Position numbers and translations under genes: made by a program
DNA from: Clavelina lepadiformis
Lineage: Eukaryota; Chordata; Ascidiacea; Aplousobranchia; Clavelinidae
Direction of reading: 5' to 3'
Length of the DNA: 64,000 bases
Assembly: GCF_947623445.1 (NCBI RefSeq)
Contig: NC_135240.1
Span: 27,590,001-27,654,000 of the forward strand
The notes under the pieces: model-generated
Told to the model about the DNA's origin: nothing
Databases searched by the model: none
Seen by the model: only the letters and a program-made list of their open reading frames with translations
In this document: positions 54,148-64,000 of the stretch, in pieces
Numbering within the stretch: position 1 is the first letter of the stretch
How the letters are laid out: the number at the start of each line of letters is the position of its first letter

Positions 54148-57660
<3,513 letters not shown>

Positions 57661-58999
57661 ACAACAGGCTATGTAACCTACATACGGTGAAATGGTCACT
57701 TTGATTTTGTAAAGTCCATTCATTCCCGTATAGTTGTTATATGCTGCAACGCCTGAAGCAGTGCAGATGAATGCATGAAATCATGTACAGTAGTCTACAG
57801 CCACGATCCTGTCCAGAACAGGTGCATGTAAATAGTGGCGTTCGGTTTAGTGTTGCCACCAATTTCTTCAAAGGGTTGTTTGAGGTTCTTTCCAAGCCTT
57901 GTATGTCTTACAATAAGTGCCACCTTCCCTTGTGTAGAATCCCATAGCCTATATATTTCTGGCAATTTAGCACAATCATCATTCATCTTAAATGTTGACC
58001 TTGAACTTATGCAGATTTGATACGAAAACTTTTAGCACATTACTTTAACTTGTATATAAAGGAAAGAATATTTTTATTCCGGAGACCAAGTACTTGATAT
58101 ATATCTTGTGCCTTGCATGAAACTTTCTGTTCTTGTTACACGTTGCACCACCAAAAACCATTACCTTAGCTTTGTTTGTGTGTGATTGTATATTTTGGCA
58201 AGCAATATATTTTGTATGTATAAGTTGATGATTATTACTGCACGTAACATTATTCATGTTTTTAATATTTGAATGAATGTTTATCTGGAAAGGATGAAGT
58301 CATATAATGATTTTACACGTTTTGGTTCATTACTTTCTTCTCAATACAAACGGAAAATCGTGTGTCGCGTTTTCAATTGTCTGAAATCGTTGTGATCGCT
58401 GAAGACTTTCTGTCAAAATATTACTGCTCTAGCGACATCAGTGGACAAGGCTTGCAAGTATAAGAAAACAGTCGCTCGTGTCTGATTCGATCGCTCCAGG
58501 CGAATTAACTTAAACAGCACTGGATGTTACAAGCTAATGAGAGCAACTTACAACCAATATCGCTTTTCTAAGGCATCAATGACAGCTTGTGTGAAAGTTT
58601 TAACTATAGTCTTTATCCGTCTACCACTGAATTCATCAGCAGCGGGTGCAATATGTACTTGCTCAGTGGTTCAGTTTATTGCAAAAAGTAACAAGTTCAA
58701 AAGCTGTTTATTTACTGTAGGAGATTAAGAAACTCTCGTGATTCTTTTAAACAGCCATTAGGCTAAGTCGTAGTGATTTATGTTGCTGTAATTTGCGATT
58801 AACTGCAGTACTCTAGCTGAAGTAGTTGAATGATTCTATGGCCGGATAAAATAAGACCATGGCTCATAAGTTTGCTTGATTTAAGTTGTTTACCGGCAGC
58901 GAAGCCAGAGCTAACTGAGTGCCTGGCAAACTATATGTAAGTTCAACCTTATAGTTAACAACAACGGTAATTTGTCTTAGTGCTTACAGAACAGCCCCG
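57661..58999. other. Intergenic stretch between ZCCHC24 and the PDZ-GRXCR gene
   Basis: No exon chain was recognised. The frame entering the downstream gene is open for some codons before its ATG, with a possible acceptor TTACAG at 58984-58989, so the mRNA leader may be spliced or trans-spliced here. Confidence 0.45.
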
Positions 59000-61900
59000 A
59001 TGGATTGTATAACAGTCGAAGTTCTAAGAAAGCCCAATGAGCCATGGGGAATACAGTTGTCAGGAGAAGCCCCTTGTAAAATCGACGACGTGAAGGTAAG
59101 TGAGGGTAAAACTCACTTTCAAACAGGGAGAGCTTGTATTTTGCCCATTCTGTGACAGTTCTGTAATTAATTATATTCGTCGTAATATTCTGCATACGAC
59201 GTCATCAATTTTACAAAAATCGGCATTGTTTTTCAAAGTCAGTTCCTTTTTTGAAAAATCGCGGTTACTTAAGCGGGGGAAAATGTGACGCTGTGCCATT
59301 GTGTTGATGATGTCACCGGTTATCCGACAAAACTGACGGTCACTGCCAACGCTTGAGAAGCATCACGAGAAATGGCGCAAAACGTTAACATATTTTTACC
59401 AAAATGTTTAGCAGCATCATAGGGATTATGGAACATACAGACCACGTCATAGCAGAAATATCAGATAAACAAGCAAACCGATGTGCTAAAGTATGACATT
59501 TTACAAAATTCAGATCAACAGCCCAGCAGAAGAGGCCGGCATACAGAAAGGCGACTGCATTTTCAGCGTGAACGGAGTCAACGCATACGACGCACCACAC
59601 GACAGCGTTGTGCAATTGATTGCCGAGAGTGGACGTGTTATAAGGTGCGACGCGTTTTCTACAACCTAGAAGTCTAACTTGAAATATACACACGTCGTAA
59701 ATATATTAACAGGTTCCTATTTTTCCAAAGGTTTAAAATGTTGCCTGCCTTGAGTGATGACGTCACGAAACCGGTTCATGTTCTGGAAGAAGGGACTTTC
59801 TGGACAAACGAAGACCCACAAGTTTTAAAGCAACAAGAGTAAATCAAGCTCAGAATTATCATTACAAAATATTGGCATTTTCATTGCAATTCACTGCTTC
59901 AAAATTTATAGCCTGCAGGCCCTCACAACTGCATTAGGTGGCGGTAGACTTAGACTCAATCATTTCTTAAAACTTTTCTTGTCCACCTTCAAGTACCGTA
60001 CAAAACTGGAACAATTTGTGCGTGCATCGCGGGCAAACCATTTGTGTCACCATGCGCGATTGCATAGGCTTTGTTTAGCTCTACTAGTTTAAACTTATCT
60101 TAACTTACCTACGCTAAAGTACGTAGCTTTCACTCTACCTAATTGCACTATCATCAAAGTAATGGAATGTAACTGACCTGCATGCCTTTGCAGAAGCCCG
60201 GCAAAATATAAAGACGAAGAAACTTTCGACCACACCGACTATGCGAGATTCTGCGAAATACTGGGGTACGTTGTTCCATCTGCAGTTTGCTTTCATCTTT
60301 CAACCATAACTCAGCAACATACTATCCGTTACAATGTCCTAAACATACTTATAACATAGCCTTAGCGCCTTAGCCTACAATAAATTATCCTACTTCTATC
60401 CACACCTGCAACTTGGTGCTAGACAAGTTGCAGCCTGTGACTGGAAATAGCCTCGTTTGAAATTTTTCGAAATTGATTACACTGAGCAGCATGTTTACGT
60501 CACAATGGTATTTTGTTAATGCATAATAGCCGGCGGGAAAAATTTAACCGCCATTATCACGCAGCCAAGACAGCAATCCTTTTGAAGTGGGAAAATTTGA
60601 AAGCCAAACGAGTCCAAAGAAAAGTGAAAAAACGAAAAAATCGAAACACAGCAAGAAGAAAAAGAAACCTGATAAAAGCGAAGTTGTCGAGCAGTCTATG
60701 TTTGTTATAACAAGAGAAGACCAAAAGGATTTTGATGAAAACTATTCATTAAATAGCACGTTCAAAGGTAGGTCTTCAAAGCGCGACGTTTGATGTCTAT
60801 TTCGTATGGGAAGATAATAGCCAGCAACTGAGCCAATTAGCATTTTTGTAATAGCTGAGTAGTTCAACTTTAAATGTAAGGTATATTGGCTTGTAACCAT
60901 GCGTTGTAGTTCACACTTATAACATTGAATTAACCCACTTCTGCCTTTGACAGGTGATAAAGCGTCTGTAGCTGGGGCGTTTACCGGTGACCATAACGTC
61001 ATTCTTGATCAGAAAGCCGACATTAGAGGCGTTAGAGCTCGCGTGGAGGCTGGAATTCAACATTTTAGTTTTGCTGACGAACAAGATAAGGTGTGTTGTT
61101 TTCAATTGTTTGTCTGGGATTGTACAATGATTTCAAACATTCTCTGTTCAAATTTGGTATCGAAAATGGGGAACTCCCATTCATTCTTTTATCGGTTGGG
61201 CTTTGTAAGCAGGCTATGAGTATACTATACAACAAAGACAGAATTGTGTTGCAGATAAACCCAGAAGACAGAGGGAAAATTATCGTCTACACAACCAGCT
61301 TGGGCGTGCATCGTGCGATTGCGCAGAATTGTGAACAAGTTCGAAAACTTCTCAAAGCATACCGCGTTAAATTTGAAGTGAGGGTCAAGTTGTTGCAGCC
61401 CTGAACGCAAAATCACGGAAAATTGTAAAATTATAAACGCAATGAGCTTTTTAGGATCGCGACGTATTCGAAAGCGCTGAACATAAAGAGGATCTTTACA
61501 AACGACTTGAGCTAGCGGAGGGGGCTCCATTTCCTGACATGCCTAGGGTGTATATCGATGGGGTTTACGTAGGGGTATGTGCTATAAGATTCTGCTGCAT
61601 GTTGAGGCAGTTATATACACAGATACTAATCAGTCAGTGTATTACTTGATATGTGCACTTTGTTGACATAGGGTGGCGACGATTTGCAAGCAATGAGCGA
61701 CTGCGGGGACCTCAGGATAAGACTCAAAGAGTTTCCAGTAATGATGTCATTCTGTCCAGTTCTTGTTATACTTATAAAGTGGCATGTTTTTTTGGTTACT
61801 TCAGGCTAATGAAACAATCACACTTCTTGCGTTGTAACCACAGAAATACAATCTTCGTTCGAAATGCCCAACTTGCGCCACCACCGGCCTGATTGTGTGT

Positions 61901-62008
61901 CACTCGTGCAAGGGCAAAGCATACAAGAAGAAGAACAGATTTGCTTCGCTAAAGTGTGGAACCTGTCGTCAGAAGGGAACCCTGAACTGTCCAGATTGTT
62001 TGCAGTGA
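59000..62008 (+). CDS. PDZ domain fused to a GRXCR-type glutaredoxin/cysteine-rich protein
   Basis: Ten exons give 406 aa: 59000-59095, 59514-59644, 59731-59838, 60194-60265, 60565-60767, 60954-61090, 61255-61377, 61455-61574, 61672-61737 and 61844-62008. Every junction is GT-AG and in phase. Residues 1-80 form a PDZ domain: ITVEVLRKPNEPWGIQLSG carries the WGIQL version of the carboxylate-binding loop, and SPAEEAGIQKGDCIFSVNG follows. A Lys/Ser-rich linker comes next. From about residue 210 the protein follows GRXCR1/GRXCR2: DIRGVRARVEAG, then IIVYTTSLGVHRAI, VRKLLKAYRVKFE, DVFESAEHK, PRVYIDGVYVGG and DLQAMSDCGDL. The C-terminal part has four CxxC pairs (CPTC, CHSC, CGTC, CPDC). Vertebrate GRXCR proteins act in sensory-hair-cell stereocilia and have no PDZ that I know of. 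The CxxC redox site of ordinary glutaredoxins is absent, so a structural role is likely. Confidence 0.88.
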
Positions 62009-62901
62009 TCATCAAAACTTCGTGTCTGGCAAACACTTATGTCGACGTTTTACTCAGCTGCCATCCCCATATTCCGTTGTGAAGTTGAGGTTAACACTTG
62101 TCATAGGCCTACGTTCGGTAACTCGTGTTTGGATTTGATGTATTTTTATTCAAAACTTACTTTATAGTTTGTACGAAAAATTCCAATATTGCTTATTGCT
62201 ATAAATGTATGCATCACTTTCATCGTTTTTATGCGCAGTTTTATTGTCTAAATATATCAAAGTCAGCTACAAAAATATCACGAAATGAAAAAAACTTTGT
62301 TTGTGACTAACGTTAAACTGGAAACGTTTTACTGGTAAACAAATTAAAACAATACAAACTACAGGCATTACATCTTAACACTATAAACTAAGTGCAAATC
62401 AAGGAAAGACACAGGAAAGTGACACTACATATAATTTATCTATCGCTTATTGGCGTGAATGATGTAAGGTATGTACTTTACATAAACATCACGTAAGAGG
62501 CATATATATAGCTCATATGATCGATTGAAAACATGCTTAAGTTCATTAATTACCATTTTTAATGCAACTGTAAGTAGTTTTAAGATTGGTAATTACAGTA
62601 TTACAATTATAATTAGTTTGAAACAGTCTTTTTGAACGGCAAAGTTTGAAATAAACTAAAACATTTCACTGCCACAGGTTAAAGTTTATCGTATTAATTT
62701 TTCCATTTATACAAAGCCAACATCATGTGCCAAAACTTTCATGACCAAGTTCATGCCTAGAAACCATTTGAAGCTCAAATTAACTTGTAACGAGCAAACC
62801 GAACCGCGTAAAGTTAGCTTTCACGCTGGAGGAAGTAACTGAATTTATTTTCCCTAGGGTGACGAGCCATGTCGATAGCCGTGACGCATGCAATGACGTC
62901 A
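62009..62901. other. Convergent 3' intergenic region
   Basis: The PDZ-GRXCR gene (plus) and the kinase gene (minus) end toward each other here. AATAAA at 62650-62655 is a candidate signal for the plus-strand gene. No other feature was seen. Confidence 0.5.
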
Positions 62902-64000
62902 TCAAAAGTTTTCGTCCCAGCCAAACTTTGCCTTGGCAATGATCTTCAAATCTTCTTCTATATTCACCTTGTCCTCCTCGACGTGGTCGAAGTGCTTCGT
63001 GTCCATCGGGTTTCTCACATCCGGTTTGAACGGGGCGTCGATCCTGCCGGCTCGGAGTCCCTGCCAATCGAATCCTTGGAACCATCTCTGCTTCCGGATG
63101 TCATTTACTCCTCCTTTCTGGTATCCGAGACGATCCCGCGGTTCCAGTCGACAGAGAGCTCGAACTAGTACCTGCGCAAAATACGGGATATTTATAAAGC
63201 GCCATCAGTAGATGCAGTGAAGCTTTAACTCCAATTTGGTGAAATCTAGGAAAAACGTCACCAAGTCACGTCAAAAGGCGTCACCTCCGCGCTTTTTCCA
63301 ACGCGTTTTGAAAACTTTACACCGTCGATGCCGCCAAGAATATTCTCGTAAACTGTCATGTCATCGCCGGCAAAAAATGGAGTCGTTCTTGTCAGCAGTT
63401 CGTAGATTAAGATCCCGAACGACCAATAATCAGCCGAAAAGTCGTGGCCTGGAGACAAGATGATGTTATTTTAAGTAAGATTTAAGTTTTTATAACAACA
63501 CTATGTACCTGTGTTGGTTAAAATCTCTGGAGGGAAGTATTCTGGAGTTCCGCAAAAGGTCCAAGTTTTGTATCCAAAGCGGACTCGTTTTGCAAAACCA
63601 AAATCAACCAGTTTTATGTATCCCCTTTGATACAAGAAAAAGTGTAAAGTAATGAACCGAACTGAGCAAACATCCAAACTGATTACATCTCTTATATTTT
63701 AACTGCTATTGGTCCACTGTTATTTTTCGTGGGAAATCAAGATACGAAAACTTTTTCCATCAAACCAAAATCAAATCTTGAATTGCATCGAAATCTTATA
63801 ACGCCAGTACTTGTGGTCAAGCATGAGATTTTCGGGCTTCATGTCTCGATAAACAATTCCTCGCAGATGCAAGTAGTCGAGCGCTTCGAGCACACAGGCA
63901 GCGCAAAATCTCGCGCTCGCGTCGTTGAGAGCTCCTTGTCTTTTGAGAACTCCATAAACCTCTCCGCCCAAGTAGGCATCCATCAGCATATAGACGTGAG
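62902..64000 (-). CDS. cGMP-dependent-type protein kinase, C-terminal part (cut by window edge)
   Basis: Minus-strand exons are 64000-63811 (continuing off the window), 63624-63509, 63448-63285 and 63171-62902, in phase and ending in TGA. About 246 residues are present. They include [13 protein letters not shown], the catalytic loop [16 protein letters not shown], the activation segment [23 protein letters not shown] and an AGC-kinase tail ending KFGWDENF. The [10 protein letters not shown] loop, GGIDGVKF segment and terminal GWD motif fit the PKG (PRKG/foraging) family and not PKA or PKC. Family members phosphorylate substrates on cGMP binding; the cyclic-nucleotide domains would lie beyond the right edge. 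The usual APE is PPE here. The first donor is a GTACTG used within CACAA|GTACTG, chosen because it restores [13 protein letters not shown]. Confidence 0.92.

What the first reader, a model, noticed from the sequence alone, without database searches (positions are those of the whole stretch)
59000..62008. PDZ domain and GRXCR module in one spliced protein
Ten exons join without a phase error to give PDZ, basic linker, GRXCR-type glutaredoxin fold and C-terminal CxxC cluster. Vertebrate GRXCR1/2, needed for stereocilia, are not known to me to carry a PDZ domain. A fusion would suggest that stand-alone GRXCR works together with a PDZ scaffold (harmonin and whirlin are the known stereocilia PDZ proteins) and could be an ancestral or tunicate-specific arrangement.
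Basis: partly seen in the sequence, partly recalled or inferred. Interest (0 to 1): 0.75.

Follow-up and report, generated by a model that had tools for sequence, protein, structure and literature searches.

The report
PDZ–GRXCR fusion gene in Clavelina
In what appears to be the genome of a sea squirt, the one relative we found of the vertebrate deafness genes GRXCR1/2 seems to carry an extra PDZ docking domain at its front end, which hints at what kind of partner this poorly understood protein works on, but RNA evidence is still needed to prove it is one protein.

Summary
Ten exons (59000-62008, +), all introns GT-AG, join to a 406-aa frame. Pfam finds PDZ (5.5e-12) and Glutaredoxin (1.3e-6); exon 10 alone scores 24.0 bits on GRXCR1-2_C, below the 26-bit cut-off. 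Chromosome lengths match Clavelina lepadiformis. The GRXCR half looks genuine: exons 7+8 total 243 nt, phase 0 to 0, like mouse Grxcr1 exon 2; a genome search found no second GRXCR-like locus. Its N-terminus (PDZ, Lys-rich linker) matches nothing in human GRXCR1 as recalled. The PDZ is nearest RGS12, not harmonin or whirlin. Two genes remain possible (AATAAA at 60379 in intron 4). Paper searches showed no PDZ-bearing GRXCR, but few papers were opened and other animals' proteins could not be searched. Best reading: one fusion protein, a new variant of a known family, about 0.7.

The parts
59000..59095 (+). exon 1: ATG, first PDZ strands with the binding-loop motif PWGIQLSG; ends phase 0
   Evidence: PDZ aa 8-77
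59514..59644 (+). exon 2: PDZ core; His61 aligns with a His of the RGS12 PDZ (start of helix alpha-B, recalled); ends phase 2
59731..59838 (+). exon 3: last PDZ strand (with Met79) and linker; ends phase 2 (read-through stops at once, 59840)
60194..60265 (+). exon 4: 72-nt phase 2-2 linker exon; can be included or skipped without shifting the frame; coding score not distinctive
60565..60767 (+). exon 5: Lys-rich linker; contains Met181 (60698), the last in-frame Met before the GRX fold
60954..61090 (+). exon 6: start of the GRXCR module (RGVRARVEAG), no Met; ends phase 0
   Evidence: comparison with recalled human GRXCR1
61255..61377 (+). exon 7: 123 nt, phase 0-0, first half of the glutaredoxin-like fold (IIVYTTSLGVHR...AQNC)
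61455..61574 (+). exon 8: 120 nt, phase 0-0, second half of the glutaredoxin-like fold (MPRVYIDGVYVG); exons 7+8 = 243 nt, as mouse Grxcr1 exon 2
61672..61737 (+). exon 9: GGDD motif and end of the glutaredoxin-like fold
61844..62008 (+). exon 10: eight-cysteine C-terminal domain and stop
60379..60384 (+). AATAAA in intron 4, about 20 nt after the read-through stop of exon 4 (60357-60359): possible end of a short PDZ-only transcript

Best explanation
It is a single 10-exon gene, most likely of Clavelina lepadiformis, whose protein joins an N-terminal PDZ domain, a lysine-rich linker and the animal GRXCR module (RGV motif, glutaredoxin-like fold, eight-cysteine C-terminal domain). Shown: the open spliced frame, the domains, and no second GRXCR-like locus in the searches made. 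Inferred: the PDZ, whose His61 predicts class I ligands (S/T-X-hydrophobic C-termini; rule recalled), brings the GRXCR module to membrane or cytoskeletal partners in actin-rich protrusions, for example the microvilli of the coronal sensory cells described in this species. There the module binds glutathione or acts on partner cysteines to weaken or remodel a complex, as proposed for zebrafish Grxcr1 on the harmonin-Sans pair. The fold keeps the MPRV and GGxDD stretches but has Ala in place of the first catalytic Cys (AQNC for CPYC), so classical dithiol chemistry is unlikely; a monothiol, glutathione-binding or purely binding role is likelier.
For: Frame and splice borders 9 of 9. PDZ 5.5e-12 and Glutaredoxin 1.3e-6 in the same frame. 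In-frame Mets are at 1, 79, 181, 319 and 338: exons 4, 6 and 7 have none, and 319 and 338 lie inside the fold, so a stand-alone GRXCR from these exons could start only at Met181, in a weak context (T at -3, T at +4). The 44 codons of exon 5 before Met181 are coding-like in the fusion frame: top 1.9% of random stop-free stretches, and 84 of 3000 dinucleotide shuffles are both stop-free and as high-scoring. Exon 4 is 72 nt, so exon 3 joins exon 5 in frame with or without it. Module orthology: 243 nt phase 0-0 as mouse exon 2; 31% identity over 192 residues to human GRXCR1 typed from recall. Partner biology: zebrafish Grxcr1 and harmonin-Sans, as told by citing papers (passages); C. lepadiformis coronal cells with cilia and microvilli (passage).
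Against: No RNA evidence was available. AATAAA at 60379 follows the read-through stop of exon 4 by about 20 nt. Exon 4 shows no coding signal. The stretch of exon 5 before Met181 is open in a second frame too. The ATG at 59000 has no strong context either (C at -3, G at +4) and follows an AG that could be a cis or trans-splice acceptor, so the true 5' end is unknown. GRXCR1-2_C stays below its cut-off, and in a six-frame genome search a chance-looking stretch on C6 outscored exon 10 (22.8 against 18.9 bits). The PDZ is not of harmonin or whirlin type, so the Usher link is by analogy. Purified mouse GRXCR1 showed no glutaredoxin activity. The Drosophila relative CG31559 was scored not detected in the fly hearing organ.
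Confidence: 0.7

Rival explanations
1. Two neighbouring genes, perhaps an operon-like pair as known in tunicates (recalled): a short PDZ protein ending in or after exon 3 or 4, and a stand-alone 226-aa GRXCR starting at Met181 in exon 5, possibly spliced to a leader at the exon 5 acceptor.
For: AATAAA at 60379 just behind the read-through stop of exon 4; exon 3 read-through stops at once, 59840; Met181 is the first ATG of exon 5 (by eye) and in frame; exon 4 without coding signal.
Against: Exons 3, 4 and 5 fit by phase, with or without exon 4; coding-like codons before Met181; weak start context of Met181; no match above chance in the window for the recalled vertebrate GRXCR1 N-terminus (best E 0.33).
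Confidence: 0.22
2. One gene with alternative products: a fusion transcript plus a PDZ-only form ending in intron 4 and/or a GRXCR-only form from Met181. This overlaps with the best explanation.
For: Possible poly(A) signal in intron 4 and internal Met181; mouse Grxcr1 has a frame-keeping skipped-exon isoform.
Against: No transcript data; a hexamer such as AATAAA is expected by chance in a few kilobases (inference).
Confidence: 0.2
3. The module is not GRXCR but another GRX-like family with a C-terminal cysteine cluster, such as plant GRX-like proteins (recalled).
For: GRXCR1-2_C below cut-off; central cysteine spacing X15 instead of X20.
Against: Same exon size and phases as mouse exon 2; upstream RGV motif shared with recalled human GRXCR1, 31% over 192 aa; no other GRXCR-like locus found in the genome.
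Confidence: 0.05

Closest known systems
Vertebrate GRXCR1 (DFNB25) and GRXCR2 (DFNB101)
   Same: Central glutaredoxin-like fold, C-terminal bipartite cysteine domain with the same C-X2-C-X7-C-X2-C spacing in each half, 243-nt phase 0-0 glutaredoxin exon block (one exon in mouse Grxcr1, two here).
   Different: N-terminal PDZ and Lys-rich linker in place of the vertebrate N-terminal region (the latter recalled); central cysteine spacing 15 instead of 20; 406 aa against 296 in mouse GRXCR1.
RGS12 PDZ domain (2kv8)
   Same: Closest solved PDZ over the whole domain (8.1e-11): LSGxAPC, SPA, GD.I..VN, shared His.
   Different: RGS12 also has PTB and RGS domains; a separate RGS12-like gene exists on chromosome 3, with its intron at another place in the PDZ by eye. 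With exon 2 alone RGS12 is no longer first.
Harmonin, whirlin, PDZD7 (stereocilia PDZ scaffolds)
   Same: PDZ proteins of the vertebrate cell type in which GRXCR1 acts; zebrafish Grxcr1 is reported to act on harmonin-Sans.
   Different: None of them among the 60 shown hits; no glutaredoxin module known to me in them.
Drosophila CG12206 and CG31559
   Same: Listed as GRXCR1 orthologue candidates (passages).
   Different: No PDZ known to me (recalled; sequences not examined).

Membership tests
GRXCR | Glutaredoxin-like domain | tested here: met
   PF00462 28.9 bits, cut-off 22.9
GRXCR | C-terminal GRXCR1/2 domain (PF23733) | tested here: inconclusive
   24.0 bits for exon 10 alone, 15.0 in the whole protein, cut-off 26; recalled human GRXCR1 gives 38.5
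GRXCR | Cysteine arrangement CX2CX7CX2CX20CX2CX7C (PMC6114524, passages) | tested here: inconclusive
   Spacing within both halves met exactly; central spacer 15 instead of 20
GRXCR | 243-bp phase 0-0 exon carrying most of the glutaredoxin domain (mouse Grxcr1, PMC8890737 section 19) | tested here: met
   Exons 7+8 = 123+120 nt, phase 0 at each border; one extra intron inside
GRXCR | Place in a tree of animal GRXCR proteins | not testable with these tools
   No animal protein collection is held
PDZ proteins | PDZ domain over Pfam cut-off | tested here: met
   46.3 bits, cut-off 23.2, aa 8-77
PDZ class I | His at the first position of helix alpha-B (rule recalled) | tested here: met
   His61 aligned with the RGS12 His; the helix position is recalled, no structure was made
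Active dithiol glutaredoxin | CPYC with nucleophilic N-terminal Cys | tested here: not met
   AQNC: Q273-N274-C275 face P-Y-C of E. coli Grx3, so Ala272 faces the first Cys; agrees with Pfam position 12 at C275 (model Cys positions recalled)
PDZ-GRXCR fusion | One transcript spanning exons 3 to 5 | not testable with these tools
   No RNA data held

The most novel reading that the evidence does not exclude
The PDZ-GRXCR fusion is real and shared by aplousobranch or all tunicates, and shows that the GRXCR module works on, or next to, the C-terminal tails bound by class I PDZ domains, so that stand-alone vertebrate GRXCR1/2 lost or never had the built-in docking domain and borrow it from a scaffold.
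Probability: 0.25. Interest if true: 0.7.

Novelty: new variant of a known kind. Interest (0 to 1): 0.5.

Why it matters
How GRXCR1/2 act in stereocilia is unsettled: zebrafish work proposes a redox action on harmonin-Sans, whereas purified mouse GRXCR1 showed no glutaredoxin activity (passages of PMC8333275). A natural fusion of GRXCR to a PDZ domain in a close invertebrate relative of vertebrates is a clue to the partner class, and it can be tested by finding what that PDZ binds. It would also give a candidate marker gene for the coronal mechanoreceptor cells of ascidians.

Tried and rejected
C6:16070570 (22.8 bits to GRXCR1-2_C) outscored the window's own exon 10 (18.9) and looked like a second GRXCR; its frames in the fetched stretches (motif and frame lists; tblastn with the window protein) show no glutaredoxin exon beside it, and the match holds stops, so I count it as chance. 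C2:21564535 and C5:10226709 (weak Glutaredoxin hits) read by eye as GST-like and SH3BGR-like frames. C2:15618437 is a CGFS monothiol glutaredoxin by its frame. Scans for relatives of the GRXCR half gave none in genome contigs (24 pattern matches, 0 confirmed) or viral contigs (4 and 0); these are prokaryote and virus collections, so this says nothing on novelty. A recalled Ciona spliced-leader 16-mer has no match in the window; uninformative, since the leader gene need not be here. A vertebrate-like GRXCR N-terminus: nothing above chance in the window.

Paper searches on novelty: GRXCR1 + PDZ, 44 papers, 25 listed, passages of 4 of them opened; glutaredoxin + PDZ + fusion + tunicate, 0; two of GRXCR1, harmonin, glutathionylation, 16; three of grxcr, invertebrate, PDZ domain, Ciona, 53, 20 listed, one of those holding grxcr; two of six terms on GRXCR and invertebrate groups, 3,903, 25 listed, none of those holding grxcr, so badly aimed; glutaredoxin domain + PDZ domain + domain architecture, 0; glutaredoxin domain-containing cysteine-rich + PDZ + fusion, 0. 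In all, 11 papers were opened, at passages only, except section 19 of PMC8890737, read whole. The zebrafish paper (Blanco-Sanchez 2018) and the first mouse Grxcr1 paper (Odeh 2010) are not held and are known here only through citing papers.

Full report
Origin. The window is G000:C1:27590001-27654000 of a 209.06-Mb assembly in 95 contigs. Contig lengths seen (C1 28.78, C2 26.53, C3 25.73, C4 25.07, C5 24.62, C6 20.77, C7 20.45 Mb) match Table 2 of the Clavelina lepadiformis genome note to within 0.01 Mb (28.79, 26.54, 25.74, 25.07, 24.62, 20.77, 20.45; PMC10884593, passages). I take the species as C. lepadiformis, an aplousobranch ascidian; no sequence was compared.

Observation. All 9 introns are GT-AG, and the joined frame is 1221 nt or 406 aa. 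Read-through of each intron meets a stop within it. Pfam: PDZ aa 8-77 (E 5.5e-12), Glutaredoxin aa 275-329 (1.3e-6), GRXCR1-2_C aa 360-404 (0.024 in the whole protein, 3.6e-5 and 24.0 bits for exon 10 alone, cut-off 26). A codon-usage score trained on 2799 codons from five long frames of this genome puts 7 of 10 exons in the top 1-6% of stop-free stretches drawn at random from window 1-57000; exons 4, 7 and 10 do not stand out. Exons 7 and 10 are coding by homology all the same, and the random stretches were not cleared of other genes, so the test has limited power.

Is the GRXCR half real GRXCR? [quoted passage not shown] Here exons 7 and 8 are 123 + 120 = 243 nt, phase 0 at all three borders. 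The C-terminal cysteines are C-X2-C-X7-C-X2-C-X15-C-X2-C-X7-C-X2-C, against CX2CX7CX2CX20CX2CX7C in mouse (PMC6114524, passages). A human GRXCR1 typed from recall aligns to aa 220-404 only, 31% over 192 residues (E 3e-30 in a one-sequence comparison), and its recalled exon borders fall at nearly the same places (one the same, YVG|GG against YLG|GA; one two residues away). That alignment is a lead, not a test. In the genome, the GRXCR half finds itself (4 matches) and one ordinary glutaredoxin. The recalled human protein finds this locus first, but narrowly (E 0.004 against 0.007 for a glutaredoxin). A family search with GRXCR1-2_C put a stretch on C6 (22.8 bits) above exon 10 (18.9), neither over the cut-off; I rejected the C6 stretch after reading its surroundings. 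PMC6114524 reports a single GRXCR relative in most non-vertebrate species, which fits.

Active site. In the E. coli Grx3 alignment, Q273-N274-C275 face P-Y-C of its active site, and the Pfam match starts at C275 on model position 12. The first catalytic Cys is therefore Ala272 (AQNC). The MPRV and GGGDD stretches shared with glutaredoxins are kept. Monothiol, glutathione-binding or non-enzymatic action is more likely than dithiol exchange (inference). Purified mouse GRXCR1 had no detectable activity, while zebrafish Grxcr1 is reported to need it (PMC8333275, passages).

The PDZ. The best solved relative is RGS12 (2kv8, E 8.1e-11), then PSD-95, NHE-RF3 and ARHGEF12; harmonin and whirlin are not among the 60 shown of 100. 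With exon 2 plus the last strand alone, PSD-95 and GRASP come first and RGS12 falls to 6.5e-5, so the RGS12 likeness rests mainly on the exon 1 part; harmonin and whirlin are again not among the 60 shown of 64. The best match in the genome outside the gene is at C3:22071839 (E 5.1e-4, 42%), followed by a PTB-like frame (by eye) and an RGS-domain exon 12 kb on (C3:22083644): an RGS12-like gene. Its intron seems to fall after LSGQ, whereas here the intron falls 9 residues further on by motif, so there is no sign of a recent copy (by eye). His61 predicts class I ligands (rule recalled).

One protein or two? In-frame Mets are at 1, 79, 181, 319 and 338. Met79 lies in the last PDZ strand, 319 and 338 inside the fold; exons 4, 6 and 7 have none. 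A stand-alone GRXCR from these exons would start at Met181 (60698, exon 5), in a weak context; the context of Met1 is not strong either (C at -3, G at +4). The informative joins are 59838/60194, 60265/60565 and 59838/60565; all are in phase. For one protein: the 44 codons of exon 5 before Met181 are coding-like in the fusion frame (top 1.9%; 84 of 3000 shuffles both open and as high), although a second frame of that stretch is open too. For two: AATAAA at 60379 lies about 20 nt after the read-through stop of exon 4, exon 4 lacks coding signal, and ascidians have trans-spliced operons (recalled). I put one protein at about 0.7, counting cases with additional short isoforms; the 0.2 given to the isoform rival overlaps with it.

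How it may work. Shown: domain order, active-site change, class I signature. Inferred: the PDZ docks on a C-terminal tail in actin-rich protrusions, and the GRXCR module then changes or masks the partner complex. The model is zebrafish Grxcr1, reported to weaken Ush1c-Ush1g (harmonin-Sans) binding (seen through PMC8333275, PMC8890737 and PMC12428828, passages); the mouse authors doubt that this holds in mouse. GRXCR1 was also among proteins co-purifying with MYO7A from chick, as was PDZD7, though its authors think some of these came along through actin (PMC5005036, passages). In C. lepadiformis the coronal cells of the oral tentacles have several cilia and microvilli (PMC10973136, passages), a plausible site. 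Expression there is untested, and a Drosophila relative was scored not detected in the fly hearing organ (PMC10898740, passages).

Novelty. The seven searches named under Tried and rejected showed no PDZ-bearing GRXCR, with the limits told there. The word PDZ does not occur in the held text of PMC6114524, which compared 55 non-vertebrate relatives from eight phyla; its supplementary figure was not seen. Other animal proteomes could not be searched, so the fusion may already sit unremarked in public annotation. I rate it a new variant of a known kind.

Noticed in passing
about 57030-57458 (+): Last two exons of a ZCCHC24-like gene, joined by eye (Zn_ribbon_3CxxC_2 7e-28, ZCCHC24_C 1.2e-21), end about 1.5 kb upstream of the PDZ exon.
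   Followed up: partly
about 62900-64000 (-): Exons of what looks by eye like an AGC-type protein kinase (DFGFAKR, FCGTPEY) on the opposite strand, tail to tail with the PDZ-GRXCR gene; its last exon alone gave no Pfam match.
   Followed up: partly
58970-59000 (+): A plausible splice acceptor (TTGTCTTAGTGCTTACAG) lies 10 nt before the ATG: either an upstream exon or a spliced-leader acceptor; the true 5' end is open.
   Followed up: no
G000:C8:5768088-5926845: Run of ten RGS-domain loci on both strands within 160 kb, which looks like a local expansion.
   Followed up: no
L050 (G000:C3:22067500-22077000): RGS12-like gene: PDZ exons, a PTB-like frame (by eye) and an RGS-domain exon 12 kb downstream.
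   Followed up: partly
G000:C2:15782886-15788928 and G000:C6:6111947-6112659: Two neighbouring glutaredoxin matches or gene copies at each place.
   Followed up: no
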